From Streptococcus pneumoniae (GTDB taxonomy: Bacteria > Bacillota > Bacilli > Lactobacillales > Streptococcaceae): DNA of 40,826 bases. Made by a program: the position numbers and the translations under genes. The notes under the pieces were generated by a model, which did not search any database, was not told where the DNA came from, and saw only the letters and a program-made list of their open reading frames with translations. Location of the stretch: NCBI RefSeq assembly GCF_001096185.1, contig NZ_CRPU01000014.1, forward strand, positions 1 to 40,826, given 5' to 3'. Within the stretch, counting starts at the first letter, position 1; every line of letters starts with the position of its first letter. Positions 9,556-14,190 of this stretch are shown in pieces.

Positions 9556-9596
9556 TGAATATTCTTTCTTTTGACAAGGATAGATGAAATAATACC

Positions 9597-9629
9597 AAAA
9601 GACTAGCAGACACAAACTGCTAGTCTTTT
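9597..9629 (+). terminator. Terminator of the glyQS-UPF0291 transcript
   Basis: Perfect 13-bp inverted repeat AAAAGACTAGCAG (9597-9609) and CTGCTAGTCTTTT (9617-9629). The A/T ends make it able to act on both strands. Confidence 0.85.
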
Positions 9630-9632
9630 GTC

Positions 9633-9659
9633 ACTTAAAAAGGAACCAAAATGGTTCCT
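9633..9659 (-). terminator. Terminator of the flavin-reductase operon
   Basis: On the minus strand GGAACC-atttt-GGTTCC is followed by TTTTT, just beyond the stop of the gene at 9670. Confidence 0.75.
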
Positions 9660-9669
9660 AAAACTATCA

Positions 9670-10908
9670 TTAGTAACTTGCACCGGCTGTAGCGTCTGCG
9701 CCACCACCGTGACCTCCAGCATCACCTGAATCAGAAGCTCCAGATGTGGCATCTGCACCACCGTGGCCTCCGGCAGGAGCTGCAGCATTTCCACCAACTA
9801 GACGTTGACCAGTTGTATTGAGGTACCAGTCAAGCCATGGTTGGAAATTAAAGATGATTTCATTGATTCCAGCATATGAACCGTCTGGATAGTACATTGC
9901 TTGGTAATTGTGGGTATTGATAACGCCTTCTGGTGTTCCTGGTACAATTGTACGGACATATTCTTGGTCCCCGTTACGCAATACGCCGACAACCCATTCA
10001 ACATTTTTCATTCTAGAATCTGGTAATGAACCGTGTACAGTTCCTAAACGGTTTCCTGATTGAGCACGTACACGTTTACCAAACATTGTATTTGGATCTT
10101 GGTGTGCGTTATTAAAGTATAAGAATTGGTTATTATCATCTGCAAATGTCAATTCAAATGGCATTGCTTTCAAGAACATATCAATTTGGTTAACTGTCAA
10201 GATACCGTGGTCTAATTTAACGTAAGTATCTCCAGAAACAGCTCCAACAAGCTCAGCTGCTTTTTCTACCCATTCAGGATCATCAGGGTCAACTCCTTGA
10301 ATGGTAGTTGCGATTGGATTTGTACAATATAAATCTTCTGGTGCGATTGGTTTTGGTTTTTTCAATTTTGAAACGACTCCCACATATTTTACAAAGTTGT
10401 CTAAACATGTTTCAAGGAAATTAATAGTTCCTTCATTTGTGATATTGCCCTCTGCGTCAAATGCTTCTTTGGCTTTACCAAGAAGGAATTCGTTACCTGG
10501 AAGCGTATAGGCATTAACACCTGGAGCGTCAAGAATCTTACGAAGGTGAACTTGGGCACGAGAAGTACCTTGGTCGTAGTAAGAAGCTCCCACAATCATG
10601 ACTGGTTTGTTTTCAAATGGATGAACTTCGTATGAAAGCCATTCAAGAACAGATTTTAGAGAAGCTGAGATTGTGTGGTTGTGCTCAGGAGTAGCAATAA
10701 TGACACCATCAGCACGCGTAATTCTGTTATACAAGAGACGCAATTGGAAGCTTTCGTCCCATTTTTCGTCTTGGTTGAACATTGGAACTTCATCAATTTC
10801 GAGAACTTCTAATTCAAATTTGAGTTTGAAGTGACGACGGATGAATTCCAAGAGTTTACGGTTATATGATTGATCGTAGTTTGATCCTACAAGTCCAACA
10901 AATTTCAT
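9670..10908 (-). CDS. NAD(P)H:FMN reductase-PAS fusion with flavinylation-like tail
   Basis: The 412-residue protein has three parts. Residues 1-185 are a flavodoxin-like NAD(P)H-dependent FMN reductase domain (GLVGSNYDQSYNRKL phosphate loop, ATPEHNHTISASLKSVLEW, GASYYDQGTSRAQ). Residues about 225-375 match a PAS domain like the one ending DUF438 proteins (FLKAMPFELTFADDNNQFLYF, then TVHGSLPDSRMKNVEWVVGVL). The last about 35 residues are a Gly/His/Ala-rich tail with two repeats holding DATSGAS (386-392) and DATAGAS (405-411). These resemble the ApbE target consensus Dxx(S/T)(G/S)A(S/T), whose last residue receives FMN; the second has Ala where the fourth position is usually Ser or Thr. The protein is the last gene of the apbE operon, 18 bp after a second reductase, with AGGAGACC before the start. 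No export signal is seen. Reductase and PAS domains are clear; covalent FMN is inferred. Confidence 0.87.
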   Translation of the reverse strand: MKFVGLVGSNYDQSYNRKLLEFIRRHFKLKFELEVLEIDEVPMFNQDEKWDESFQLRLLYNRITRADGVIIATPEHNHTISASLKSVLEWLSYEVHPFENKPVMIVGASYYDQGTSRAQVHLRKILDAPGVNAYTLPGNEFLLGKAKEAFDAEGNITNEGTINFLETCLDNFVKYVGVVSKLKKPKPIAPEDLYCTNPIATTIQGVDPDDPEWVEKAAELVGAVSGDTYVKLDHGILTVNQIDMFLKAMPFELTFADDNNQFLYFNNAHQDPNTMFGKRVRAQSGNRLGTVHGSLPDSRMKNVEWVVGVLRNGDQEYVRTIVPGTPEGVINTHNYQAMYYPDGSYAGINEIIFNFQPWLDWYLNTTGQRLVGGNAAAPAGGHGGADATSGASDSGDAGGHGGGADATAGASY

Positions 10909-10926
10909 TCTTTTTGGTCTCCTATC

Positions 10927-11532
10927 TTACAAATTTTCCCAGTCAAAGTCTTCAGCATCTTTGCGAAGTAATTCTTGTGCGTTACGCAATTTCTCTGTGA
11001 TTTTTACAAAGATACGGAAGTCGTCAAAAGTGGCATCCAGTTTTTTAATAACATCAAGATCTACTAGATCTCCACTTGGATTAAAGGCTTGAAGAGAATG
11101 TGAAAGCAAGAATTCATCTGGAAGGACACTTGCTTTAATTTCTGGAGCATTCAAGATTTGGCGAAGTTGCATTTGGGCGCGTGATGAACCAAGTGTACCG
11201 TAAGAAGCACCTGTAATCATGATTGGTTTGTTCAAGAGTGGGTAAATACCATAAGACAACCAAGCAAGAGCGCTCATCAAAACAGCTGGGATAGAGTGGT
11301 CGTACTCAGGAGTACCGATAATAACGCCATCTGCTTCTTCAATTTTAGCAGCAATTTCTAAGATTTCAGCAGGTACTTGCTTGTCAGCTGGTTTGTTGAA
11401 GACAGGGATGTCTTTAATTTCAACAAGTTCAATTTCAGCTTTGTCAGCAAAGTGTTTTTGCATGTATTGAAGCAATTGACGGTTTGTAGAACGTTTTGAA
11501 TTTGTTCCAACAATAGCAATAAGGTTTAACAT
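10927..11532 (-). CDS. NAD(P)H-dependent FMN reductase family protein
   Basis: A single-domain 201-residue flavodoxin-like reductase: GTNSKRSTNRQL near the N-terminus binds the FMN phosphate, and GTPEYDHSIPAVLMSALAWLSYG and GASYGTLGSSRAQMQLRQIL are the family's conserved blocks. It is close to the N-terminal domain of the next gene, so the pair probably arose by duplication. It is a soluble enzyme expected to use NAD(P)H to reduce FMN or an FMN-linked acceptor. It lies between apbE and the PAS fusion in one operon, with an AAAGGAAA ribosome-binding site. Confidence 0.9.
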   Translation of the reverse strand: MLNLIAIVGTNSKRSTNRQLLQYMQKHFADKAEIELVEIKDIPVFNKPADKQVPAEILEIAAKIEEADGVIIGTPEYDHSIPAVLMSALAWLSYGIYPLLNKPIMITGASYGTLGSSRAQMQLRQILNAPEIKASVLPDEFLLSHSLQAFNPSGDLVDLDVIKKLDATFDDFRIFVKITEKLRNAQELLRKDAEDFDWENL

Positions 11533-11591
11533 GAGATTTCCTTTCTCTTTTTACATAATACGATTTTAAAACTCTACTGAAACATCTGTTT

Positions 11592-12515
11592 CTATAGAGT
11601 AGGAATTCCTGAAGAACAGCTTAGGTGGCCTTCTTTATCGATGAGGATAGCTTCGATGCCCTCCAAACTTTCGACTTGCCAGAGGATAGAAGCAGGTCTT
11701 TCTCCAAATAGACGAGTTGTCCAGATTTCACCATCGACTGATTTATCAGAGATGATTGTTAGACTTGCTAGTTCCGTTTCAACAGGATATCCTGTTTGAC
11801 TGTCAAAAATGTGATGGTAATCTTGTCCATCGACGGTCAGGTGACGTTCATAAATGCCTGAAGTCACGACAGATTGATTGACAACAGGAATGGTCATTAA
11901 GTGATTTCCCCTCGGATTGGCTGGGTCTTGAATCCCTATTTGCCAAGACTGATTTCCTCTTGCCTGATTTTTTCCAATGGTCAGGATATTCCCTCCCAGA
12001 TTGATTAAGGCAGATGTCACACCCTCTTTTCTAAGAAATTGTGCAACCTTATCCGCACTATAACCCTTGGCTAAACAACCAAGATCGATCTTCATTCCTT
12101 TCTGTTTCAAGAACACAGTGGAAGCAGAAGAATCTAACTCGATATAGTAAGGATTGATTAAAGGTAGCACCGCTTCAATTTCTTGAGGTTGGGCCACTTT
12201 GGCATCTGAAAAACCGATACGCCAGGTTTGAATTAAGGGACCAATACTGATGTTGAGATGGCTAGAGGGCGCTAAGCTATGCTCTAACCCAAGTGAAATC
12301 AGTTCAAACAGGTCTGGATGAACTTTGACTGGAGCTATTCCAGCTTGATGATTGATTTCCATCAACTCAGATTCTTGGCTATTAGCATTGAAGCGGTATT
12401 CTAGCTCTCTGAGTAAATCAAAGGATTTTTGGAGCAAGCTATCGGCTCGCTCATCCACTAATGAAATAGTGATAGTAGTCCCCATTAGCCGTTCAGAATG
12501 TGAACTAAGAGGCAA
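11592..12515 (-). CDS. apbE: FAD:protein FMN transferase ApbE (cytosolic type)
   Basis: ApbE moves FMN from FAD onto a Ser or Thr of target proteins, using magnesium. Visible marks are RLMGTTITI at the N-terminus, DLGCLAKGYSADKVA in the centre, LINLGGNI, and HHIFDSQTGYP with the FMN/metal-binding region near the C-terminus. Most ApbE proteins are exported lipoproteins. This one has no signal peptide or lipobox and starts a few residues before the LMGT motif, so it should act in the cytosol. The start is TTG at 12513-12515, chosen because AAAGGAG lies 9 nt upstream. It is the first gene of a three-gene operon whose last product carries ApbE-like target motifs. Length 307 residues. Confidence 0.92.
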   Translation of the reverse strand: MPLSSHSERLMGTTITISLVDERADSLLQKSFDLLRELEYRFNANSQESELMEINHQAGIAPVKVHPDLFELISLGLEHSLAPSSHLNISIGPLIQTWRIGFSDAKVAQPQEIEAVLPLINPYYIELDSSASTVFLKQKGMKIDLGCLAKGYSADKVAQFLRKEGVTSALINLGGNILTIGKNQARGNQSWQIGIQDPANPRGNHLMTIPVVNQSVVTSGIYERHLTVDGQDYHHIFDSQTGYPVETELASLTIISDKSVDGEIWTTRLFGERPASILWQVESLEGIEAILIDKEGHLSCSSGIPTL

Positions 12516-12744
12516 GCTACCAACTCCTTTCTCTTATAGAAAATAAGTTGTAATATCAAGCAATTATCTAAATTGAAGCCCTTACATTTTATTTTCATGT
12601 TATTAGAATACCATAAAGTTAGACTTTTCACAAATAAAATTTGGAAAAAGTCAAGAAATATGCTCACAAAAATTCATGAGGTTTGAAAACAGGATAAATG
12701 GGGAATTATTTTTGATAAAAAATGCTGAAATAATAGCAAACCAC
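12516..12744. other. Divergent intergenic region apbE/nox
   Basis: AT-rich, with no gene. On the minus side a weak -35/-10 set (TTGATA and TATAAG, short spacing) precedes apbE. The nox promoter lies at the right end (listed separately). Confidence 0.5.
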
Positions 12745-12810: not shown

Positions 12811-14190
12811 ATGAGTAAAATCGTTGTAGTTGGTGCTAACCACGCTGGTACAGCATGTATCAATACCATGTTGGATAATTTTGGAAATGAGAACGAAATT
12901 GTTGTATTTGACCAAAACTCTAACATCTCTTTCCTAGGATGTGGAATGGCCCTTTGGATCGGTGAACAAATTGACGGTGCTGAAGGCTTGTTCTATTCTG
13001 ATAAAGAAAAATTGGAAGCTAAAGGTGCTAAGGTTTACATGAATTCACCTGTTCTTTCAATCGACTACGACAACAAAGTAGTTACAGCAGAAGTTGAAGG
13101 AAAAGAGCACAAAGAACCATATGAAAAATTGATTTTCGCTACAGGTTCTACACCAATCTTGCCACCAATCGAAGGTGTTGAAATTGTTAAAGGGAACCGC
13201 GAATTTAAAGCAACTCTTGAAAACGTACAATTCGTGAAATTGTACCAAAACGCTGAAGAAGTGATTCACAAATTGGCTGACAAGAGCCAACACCTTGACC
13301 GCATCGCTGTTGTTGGTGGTGGTTATATCGGTGTTGAACTTGCTGAAGCCTTCGAGCGTCTAGGAAAAGAAGTTGTCCTTGTTGATATTGTAGACACTGT
13401 TTTGAACGGTTACTATGATAAAGACTTCACTCAAATGATGGCGAAGAACTTAGAAGAAAACAACATCCGCTTGGCGCTTGGTCAAACAGTAAAAGCTATC
13501 CAAGGTGATGGAAAAGTAGAACGTTTGGTAACAGACAAAGAAACATTTGATGTGGATATGGTTGTTCTTGCGGTTGGTTTCCGTCCAAACACAGCTCTTG
13601 CTGATGGTAAGATTGAACTATTCCGCAACGGTGCCTTCCTTGTAGACAAGAAACAAGAAACATCAATTCCAGGAGTTTATGCAGTAGGTGACTGTGCAAC
13701 TGTTTATGATAATGCTCGTAAAGATACAAGCTACATCGCTCTTGCTTCAAATGCTGTTCGTACTGGTATCGTTGGTGCCTACAACGCTTGTGGACATGAA
13801 TTGGAAGGAATCGGTGTGCAAGGTTCAAATGGTATCTCAATTTACGGTCTTCACATGGTTTCAACTGGTTTGACTCTTGAAAAAGCAAAAGCTGCTGGTT
13901 ACAACGCAACTGAAACAGGCTTTAACGATCTTCAAAAACCAGAATTCATGAAACATGACAACCATGAAGTAGCCATCAAGATTGTCTTTGATAAAGATAG
14001 CCGTGAAATTCTTGGCGCTCAAATGGTATCACGCGATTCTGCAATCAGCATGGGGATTCACATGTTCTCACTTGCTATCCAAGAGCATGTAACAATTGAT
14101 AAATTGGCATTGACAGACCTATTCTTCTTGCCACACTTCAACAAACCTTACAACTACATCACAATGGCTGCCCTTACAGCTGAAAAATAA
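12811..14190 (+). CDS. nox: NADH oxidase, water-forming
   Basis: Nox reduces oxygen to water with NADH and FAD, regenerating NAD for fermentation and lowering oxidative stress. The 459-residue protein has the N-terminal FAD fold ([13 protein letters not shown]), the redox-active Cys44 in [10 protein letters not shown], an NAD-binding fold ([17 protein letters not shown]), the second FAD contact ([11 protein letters not shown]) and the dimerisation domain. The single Cys (not a CxxC pair) fits the four-electron, water-forming type. AGGCAGG precedes the ATG. A CcpA site overlaps the promoter. It is divergent from the apbE flavin operon. Confidence 0.96.

What the first reader, a model, noticed from the sequence alone, without database searches (positions are those of the whole stretch)
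9670..12515. Cytosolic ApbE encoded with a reductase that carries two flavinylation-like motifs on a flexible tail
Seen: the gene at 9670-10908 encodes an FMN reductase domain, a PAS domain, and a Gly/His-rich repeat tail with DATSGAS (residues 386-392, nt 9733-9753) and DATAGAS (405-411, nt 9676-9696). Known: ApbE attaches FMN to the last Ser/Thr of Dxx(S/T)(G/S)A(S/T). The first motif fits fully; the second has Ala at position four. The apbE gene in the same operon lacks an export signal. Inference: FMN is attached at Ser392 and perhaps Ser411, giving a swinging covalent flavin that shuttles electrons between the reductase domain, the PAS domain, the partner reductase or an unknown acceptor. 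The tail repeats GGHGG, so metal binding is also conceivable. Most ApbE targets described are exported or membrane proteins, which would make this cytosolic arrangement unusual.
Basis: partly seen in the sequence, partly recalled or inferred. Interest (0 to 1): 0.85.

Follow-up and report, generated by a model that had tools for sequence, protein, structure and literature searches.

The report
Cytosolic NADH reductase with flavin-tagged tail
This streptococcal operon most likely makes a two-part NADH enzyme whose floppy tail is loaded with covalently attached flavins by a dedicated enzyme inside the cell; it joins two separate lines of published work, on hydrogen-peroxide-forming flavin reductases of lactic acid bacteria and on protein flavin-tagging, and suggests a quick bench test.

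Summary
In detail: an FMN_red domain, a PAS_10 domain and a tail with DATSGAS and DATAGAS, beside a signal-less ApbE and a second FMN_red gene. The motifs are not chance: 109 of 110 close Streptococcus loci keep two, and 34 diverse tails hold 90 motifs against 0.83 in shuffles. The genome has one ApbE, no FMN_bind, and this tail as its only D-x-x-[ST]-G-A-[ST] in a long frame. The class is published: Huang et al. 2024 report ApbE-associated FMN_red proteins with C-terminal motifs and show flavinylation of two Lactococcus examples. Not found in print in my searches: the link to FRedA/FRedB/LjPAS, the H2O2-forming NADH:FMN reductase of Lactobacillus johnsonii. I identified LjPAS by its published primers; it carries three motifs, and a signal-less apbE is the third gene downstream of the FMN_red pair. 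Of 39 relatives across the order, 38 have two or more sites, multi-PAS forms 6-9. Best reading: an NADH reductase that reduces FMN tethered to the PAS tail instead of free FMN; the acceptor (O2 or another) is unknown. Nothing was measured here.

The parts
9670..10908 (-). FMN_red - PAS_10 - flavin-tail protein, 412 aa (P0001)
   Evidence: orthologues
10468..10908 (-). FMN_red domain, residues 1-147, with conserved FMN-site stretch TPEHNHT..ASLK (role of the stretch recalled)
   Evidence: Pfam PF03358 E 8e-34; AF2 block means of pLDDT 59-93; conserved columns
9844..10185 (-). PAS_10 domain, residues 242-355
   Evidence: Pfam PF13596 E 3e-21; solved relative 2qkp, profile E 1e-29
9673..9798 (-). 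low-complexity tail, residues 371-412; linker length and make-up vary between species
9733..9753 (-). flavinylation motif 1 DATSGAS, predicted FMN-Ser392
   Evidence: D386 and A391 invariant, S392 in 90% or more of 34 diverse sequences
9676..9696 (-). flavinylation motif 2 DATAGAS, possible FMN-Ser411; variant of the usual DATSGAS
   Evidence: 10 of 110 Streptococcus loci have DATAGAS as second motif; the others listed have DATSGAS, DASSGAS (L063) or DATSSAS (L036), and L070 has a single motif
10927..11532 (-). partner FMN_red protein, 201 aa (P0002), no motif
   Evidence: PF03358 E 7e-35; in 110 of 110 Streptococcus loci and 39 of 39 order loci
11592..12515 (-). ApbE FAD:protein FMN transferase, 307 aa, no export signal seen (P0003)
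   Evidence: PF02424 254.9 bits; the only ApbE found in the genome; N-terminus
12524..12530 (-). ribosome-binding site AAAGGAG before the TTG start of apbE
   Evidence: sequence
9596..9659 (-). two terminator-like hairpins after the operon
   Evidence: 3 found in the region, 2.0 expected in shuffles, so weak

Best explanation
The operon encodes (1) a cytosolic ApbE, (2) a small FMN_red subunit and (3) a large FMN_red subunit fused to a PAS_10 domain and a flavin tail. ApbE puts FMN on Ser392 and probably Ser411. The two FMN_red subunits form a heterodimer like FRedA/FRedB of Lactobacillus johnsonii that takes electrons from NADH into non-covalent FMN. The tail flavins then act as tethered second substrates: they swing into the reductase site, are reduced, and hand electrons on, by default to O2 (giving H2O2) and perhaps to another acceptor held by or docked at the PAS domain. 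Shown by sequence: domains, motifs, operon, conservation, lack of an export signal, motifs on the PAS polypeptide even where it is a separate protein. Shown in print for relatives only: flavinylation of FMN_red tails (Lactococcus), NADH oxidation and H2O2 formation by FRedA/B. Inferred: flavinylation here, heterodimer here, tail FMN as the physiological substrate, the role of the PAS domain, and the acceptor.
For: Motif conserved while the linker is not. apbE in the same locus in 109 of 110 close Streptococcus loci and 33 of 39 order loci; the six others have ApbE elsewhere. Own genome: one ApbE, no FMN_bind, one strict site in a long frame. 5 of 197 Streptococcus genomes lack ApbE: 4 have no strong target match and the fifth, G160, has a broken target. 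In G076 both genes are broken; in G536 the short ApbE is broken and the target frame lacks its N-terminal part. Motifs go with the PAS polypeptide: in 11 of 13 g9 genomes the separate PAS protein has 2-3 motifs. LjPAS was recognised by two published 20-base primers with 0 mismatches in G204; it is 28,022 Da, and a signal-less apbE is the third gene downstream of two FMN_red genes 12 bases apart. FRedA/B uses FMN with Km 20 uM, kcat 146 s-1, and makes H2O2 (PMC4500961). HcrB-like sister proteins carry FMN_red, an ApbE-type FMN_bind site and FAD_binding_2. Huang 2024: two Lactococcus FMN_red proteins flavinylated, Ser/Thr needed (PMC11334425). In S. agalactiae apbE and the two following FMN reductase genes change together, -2.09, -2.11, -2.12 (PMC6224512, passage).
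Against: No flavinylation measured. The AF2 models give no usable PAS or tail (mean pLDDT 33 for PAS plus tail; tail blocks about 25), so reach of the tail to the FMN site is untested. LjPAS was reported to slow assembly of FRedA/B, a regulatory role. The L. johnsonii subunits have long branches and their match to the two streptococcal subunits is unresolved. H2O2 formation is published only for L. johnsonii. In three more distant Streptococcus loci (L219, L220, L221), in L041 and in L267 no apbE lies in the fetched stretch. One LjPAS-type protein (L332, G263) has no motif and one (L331) has a single one. G133 keeps an intact apbE frame with a broken target, and 19 of 23 Streptococcus genomes without a strong target match still have an ApbE, so co-occurrence is one-sided. 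Fisher p for ApbE against target is 6.7e-4 counting strong matches alike (1 of 5 against 173 of 192) and 1.0e-4 leaving out targets seen broken (0 of 5 against 164 of 192); kinship is ignored. One search printed 1.8e-5 from an uneven count, which I withdraw.
Confidence: 0.6

Rival explanations
1. Cofactor anchoring: the covalent FMN simply sits in the FMN_red pocket as a fixed prosthetic group, and the tail is just a tether that stops flavin loss. (The rivals overlap in part with the best explanation, so the odds do not sum to one.)
For: Huang et al. place the L. lactis sites near the conserved FMN site in AlphaFold models. FRedA/B has two FMN sites per heterodimer and the streptococcal tail has two motifs.
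Against: 31 of 39 order loci have three or more motifs, up to 9, more than two pockets. Motifs also sit on separate PAS proteins without an FMN_red domain.
Confidence: 0.22
2. Redox sensor: the PAS domain and its flavin tail report flavin or oxygen status and control assembly of the reductase, as proposed for LjPAS, without carrying catalytic electrons.
For: LjPAS lowers the initial rate by more than half when preincubated with FRedB, and its gene is repressed more than 3-fold under anaerobic conditions (PMC4500961). PAS domains are common sensors (recalled).
Against: LjPAS was made in E. coli, whose ApbE is exported (recalled), so probably without its flavins; no output domain is fused; multi-PAS forms carry 6-9 sites, odd for a sensor.
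Confidence: 0.15
3. Specific organic acceptor: the enzyme is an HcrAB-like reductase in which PAS_10 replaces the FMN_bind and FAD_binding_2 part and binds a small molecule that the tail flavins reduce.
For: HcrB-like proteins group with the PAS-tail proteins in the FMN_red tree (100/97; 89/96) and share the partner gene; PAS residues H292, H333, N259, N260 and Q261 are invariant in 34 sequences.
Against: No catalytic domain beyond FMN_red and PAS; I know of no ligand for PAS_10; H2O2 formation is documented for the L. johnsonii relative.
Confidence: 0.15
4. The tail is not flavinylated; the motif is a low-complexity repeat or a metal-binding stretch.
Against: GGHGG in 2 of 34 tails and no His at all in 11 of 34; motif invariance and ApbE linkage.
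Confidence: 0.05

Closest known systems
ApbE-associated FMN_red flavinylation substrates (Huang, Meheust, Barquera, Light 2024, PMC11334425; sections 6 and 14 read, rest by find)
   Same: FMN_red domain, C-terminal extension with ApbE motif(s), apbE neighbour, Firmicutes; flavinylation shown for two Lactococcus proteins.
   Different: The main text has no PAS domain and no word beginning Strepto and speaks of one to two motifs; supplements not seen. I could not tell whether their L. lactis protein has a PAS domain: the PAS form occurs on named L. lactis plasmids, the PAS-less form in unnamed genera of the same family.
FRedA/FRedB/LjPAS of Lactobacillus johnsonii (Valladares 2015, PMC4500961, abstract and sections 18-22 and 26 read; Hertzberger 2014, cited there and in PMC10295242, not read)
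   Same: Two adjacent FMN_red genes and a PAS_10 protein; the paper notes PAS-FMN_red fusions in L. plantarum Lp2732 and E. faecalis EF1227.
   Different: Here PAS is fused. The main text has no word beginning flavinyl, ApbE or covalent and treats LjPAS as a regulator; the three motifs on LjPAS are reported here.
HcrA/HcrB hydroxycinnamate reductase of Lactiplantibacillus plantarum (review PMC10295242, passages)
   Same: Small FMN_red partner plus large FMN_red protein forming a heterodimer; the HcrB-like proteins here carry an ApbE-type motif.
   Different: HcrB-like proteins have FMN_bind and FAD_binding_2 (Pfam run on L202, L204, L206, L274); P0001 has PAS_10 and a tail instead. That these are HcrB-like is my assignment by domain order.
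Cytosolic ApbE with soluble fumarate reductase of Klebsiella pneumoniae (review PMC12052999, passages)
   Same: Signal-less ApbE modifying a cytosolic redox enzyme.
   Different: Target is a fumarate reductase, not an FMN_red-PAS protein.
Multi-flavinylated extracytosolic proteins (PMC8238504, passages; PMC10339131, listing only)
   Same: Several covalent FMN on one polypeptide.
   Different: The eLife survey kept only clusters with a signal peptide or lipid site, so cytosolic systems were filtered out.

Membership tests
ApbE-associated FMN_red substrates | FMN_red (PF03358) domain | tested here: met
   116.8 bits, cut-off 24
ApbE-associated FMN_red substrates | C-terminal extension with flavinylation motif(s) | tested here: met
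   DATSGAS fits D-x-x-[ST]-G-A-[ST]; DATAGAS has Ala at position 4
ApbE-associated FMN_red substrates | apbE neighbour | tested here: met
   window; 109 of 110 close Streptococcus loci; not in L219-L221
ApbE-associated FMN_red substrates | covalent FMN depending on the motif Ser/Thr | not testable with these tools
   shown in print for two Lactococcus proteins
FRedA/FRedB/PAS H2O2-forming reductase | two adjacent FMN_red genes | tested here: met
   18-bp gap in the window; 12-bp gap in G204, as published
FRedA/FRedB/PAS H2O2-forming reductase | PAS_10 partner, fused or separate | tested here: met
FRedA/FRedB/PAS H2O2-forming reductase | subunit-by-subunit orthology with L. johnsonii | tested here: inconclusive
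   long branches join the two L. johnsonii rows
FRedA/FRedB/PAS H2O2-forming reductase | heterodimer, NADH oxidation, H2O2 formation | not testable with these tools
   bench only
HcrB | FMN_bind and FAD_binding_2 domains | tested here: not met
   absent from P0001, present in L202, L204, L206, L274
cytosolic ApbE | ApbE domain over full length, no signal peptide or lipobox | tested here: met
   PF02424 1-266 of 266; hydropathy maximum -0.19 before the core; no signal-peptide program was available
FMN_bind domain proteins | PF04205 around the motif | tested here: not met
   no PF04205 in P0001 or in the genome

The most novel reading that the evidence does not exclude
The physiological substrate of the NADH:flavin reductases of lactic acid bacteria and streptococci is not free FMN but FMN covalently strung on a disordered PAS tail, a cytosolic flavin wire that in some species carries 6-9 flavins around 2-3 PAS domains; LjPAS, described as a regulator of H2O2 output, is in truth this flavin carrier.
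Probability: 0.45. Interest if true: 0.78.

Novelty: new variant of a known kind. Interest (0 to 1): 0.6.

Why it matters
H2O2 made by lactobacilli and streptococci shapes microbial communities and host signalling, and one of its sources is the FRedA/B reductase. If its PAS partner is a covalent multi-flavin carrier, the published in vitro work used an unmodified protein, and kinetics with free FMN describe a stand-in. Flavinylation would also become a widespread cytosolic modification in Lactobacillales (195 of 395 sampled genomes hold the PAS-tail family), which the 2021 survey could not see because it required a signal peptide or lipid site.

Tried and rejected
Rex-type operator upstream of apbE: 5 matches in the whole window with up to 3 mismatches against 5.25 expected, none in the apbE-nox gap. 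Metal binding by GGHGG: not conserved. Whether the family lies outside the order: a 398-genome phylum sample gave 2 hits at E<=1e-10, both of the window's own genus. Pneumococcal papers on SPD_1300/1301 (passages) give only table entries (0.73, -2.2, 1.96 and about 1.5) and no function; that SPD_1300-1302 are these three genes is recalled, and fits the names in those tables. Two papers that my searches listed with ApbE and Streptococcus were opened by find: PMC7074142 (a figure legend calls EF1225 of Enterococcus faecalis an ApbE, two numbers from the EF1227 fusion named by Valladares; no FMN reductase or PAS domain in it) and PMC6224512. The two original papers on HcrB and on the L. johnsonii flavin reductase are not held.

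Rows dropped: the loci L208-L217, L225 and L261 were left out of the tree, and a regular expression that finds the domain start dropped further rows, among them two of the four multi-PAS proteins. In A3 33 of 43 candidates entered; 10 were dropped because the start pattern did not match, and L211, L225 and L261 were set aside before. In one search, 71 distinct proteins were thinned to 32, with L063 skipped for a run of N. One search used a hand-picked part of the rows.
Full report
What is there. The window lies in a Streptococcus genome (its gene is 99% identical to those of named S. mitis and S. pseudopneumoniae records). On the minus strand, after a divergent gene (12811-14190) that looks like NADH oxidase (my reading of its sequence), come apbE (11592-12515), an FMN_red gene (10927-11532) and the FMN_red-PAS_10-tail gene (9670-10908), with gaps of 59 and 18 bases. 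ApbE begins about 10 residues before its core and has no hydrophobic leader; of 53 ApbE frames listed, the window's included, most start soon before the core. This was judged by eye and by a 12-residue hydropathy window, not by a signal-peptide program.

Is the motif real. Among 110 Streptococcus loci (80, 30, the closest matches to the window, some of them the same genome) 109 have two motifs and one (L070) has one, while the linker between them changes in length and make-up. In 34 diverse Lactobacillales sequences D386 and A391 are invariant and S392 is kept in 90% or more, in an otherwise unalignable tail; 90 motifs are seen where shuffled tails give 0.83 on average and 6 at most. In the own genome the strict motif occurs in one long reading frame only, this one; ApbE occurs once and FMN_bind not at all. 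So if this ApbE has a substrate with the strict motif, it is this tail.

The second motif. DATAGAS is found in 10 of 110 loci: nine with a P0001 95-100% identical to the window's, and L108 at 90%. Ala at position 4 also occurs in L036, L230, L310 and L316, and as the only motif of the HcrB-like protein of L274, inside its FMN_bind domain, so it is probably tolerated.

Distribution. Of 197 Streptococcus genomes 174 have a match to P0001 at E<=1e-37. Of these, 10 have as best match an open frame of 764-827 aa of the HcrB-like kind and one more (G095) a broken one; in G052 the match is cut by a contig end. The remaining 162 are of the PAS kind by score and listed extent (the listing is cut off), several of them broken. 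5 of 197 lack ApbE and none of these 5 has an intact target. In a sample of 395 Lactobacillales genomes 195 (48 of 80 genera) match the PAS-tail part at E<=1e-12; in a phylum sample of 398 only the two genomes of the window's genus do, at E<=1e-10. In 39 order loci read in detail, 39 have the partner FMN_red, 33 have apbE in the fetched stretch, and 38 have two or more motifs (seven have two, 21 three, six four, four 6-9, one has one). The six without a local apbE (one of them, L244, on a 3.2-kb contig) have ApbE elsewhere, though in G536 the short type is broken and in G374 the only one found has a longer frame of 388 aa. Four more distant Streptococcus loci were also read: L218 has apbE in place, L219, L220 and L221 do not, and their genomes have 1-3 ApbE matches.

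Architectures. The flavin tail appears on (a) FMN_red-PAS_10-tail; (b) FMN_red with two (L248) or three (L241, L255, L257) PAS_10 domains and 6-9 motifs; (c) FMN_red-tail without PAS in other genera of the family, 12 loci, 11 of them beside apbE and 6 of them beside a separate PAS_10 gene (L262, L264, L265, L267, L268, L271; Pfam run on three of the six); (d) a separate PAS_10-tail protein (LjPAS type); (e) a predicted lipoprotein with FMN_bind, PAS_10 and motifs (L225). HcrB-like FMN_red-FMN_bind-FAD_binding_2 proteins (Pfam on L202, L204, L206, L274) have a partner gene of the same kind. In the tree of FMN_red domains the PAS-tail and HcrB-like proteins group together, the partners form one clade, and the PAS-less tail proteins another (midpoint root, bootstrap not fully settled).

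The link to L. johnsonii. Valladares 2015 describes FRedA/FRedB, an obligate heterodimer with two FMN sites that oxidises NADH with FMN as substrate and makes H2O2, and LjPAS, a 28 kDa PAS_10 protein that slows assembly; it notes that LjPAS is fused to FMN reductase in L. plantarum and E. faecalis. Its main text contains no word beginning with flavinyl, ApbE or covalent. Its two LjPAS primers match one gene in G204 without mismatch; the protein is 244 aa, 28,022 Da, PAS_10 at 69-183, with DATTGAT, DTATGAS and DTSSGAS at its end. About 100 kb away lie two FMN_red genes 12 bases apart, as published, and an apbE without export signal as the third gene downstream on the same strand. A second PAS protein of that genome also ends with DAESGAS. 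Of 13 genomes of that unnamed genus (g9), 11 have two or three motifs on the PAS protein, G456 has one, and G263 none (its frame differs after the PAS domain).

Mechanism. Two lines of published work meet: FMN_red tails are ApbE substrates (Huang 2024) and the FRed dimer reduces FMN taken from solution. Since the motifs follow the PAS polypeptide, fused or not, and often outnumber the FMN pockets, I think the tail flavins are tethered substrates rather than fixed cofactors. Acceptor: O2 by analogy; others are open. The PAS domain has two invariant histidines (292, 333) and an invariant NNQ (259-261) in 34 sequences, and it resembles solved 2qkp, an uncharacterised protein; whether it docks a flavin or binds a ligand is unknown. 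In S. agalactiae the apbE and the two FMN reductase genes that follow change together with temperature (PMC6224512, passage), which fits one operon.

Novelty. In one search, of the 20 papers listed out of 33, the only one that holds LjPAS or FRedB holds neither flavinylation nor ApbE. Searches listed no paper on a Streptococcus or PAS-domain flavinylation target by title and abstract start; most listed papers were not opened. Only open-licence PMC papers are covered, and Huang's supplements were not seen. The kind is known; the PAS-borne, multi-site, heterodimer-linked form and the motifs on LjPAS are what I would call a new variant.

Noticed in passing
L225:2448-3650 (-): A predicted lipoprotein with an FMN_bind domain (DQISGAT), a PAS_10 domain and further motifs DADSGAS and DADSSAS: an exported cousin of the PAS-flavin module.
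   Followed up: partly
L241:4296-6998, L248:4378-6528, L255:1110-3782, L257:1900-4545: FMN_red proteins of 717-901 aa (frames) with two or three PAS_10 domains and 6-9 flavinylation motifs in clusters between and after them.
   Followed up: partly
L307 (Lactococcus lactis pGdh442), L308, L309 (Enterococcus faecium plasmid): The apbE-FMN_red-FMN_red-PAS operon sits on plasmids: 111 of 72,556 plasmid records match P0001 at 1e-20, 108 over at least 80% of it, 95 of the 111 Enterococcus, 59 predicted conjugative; in L309 IS1216 copies lie on both sides.
   Followed up: no
L227, L228 and 14 other loci: A helix-turn-helix regulator of the XRE/Rgg look (my reading) is a neighbour of the operon in 16 of 63 loci.
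   Followed up: no
L208 (G160), L215 (G076), L261 (G536): ApbE and the flavin-tail protein are lost or broken together in three genomes; sequencing errors are not excluded.
   Followed up: partly
L364:14717-15313 (-): A second PAS_10 protein of the L. johnsonii-type genome G204 ends in a single motif DAESGAS.
   Followed up: no
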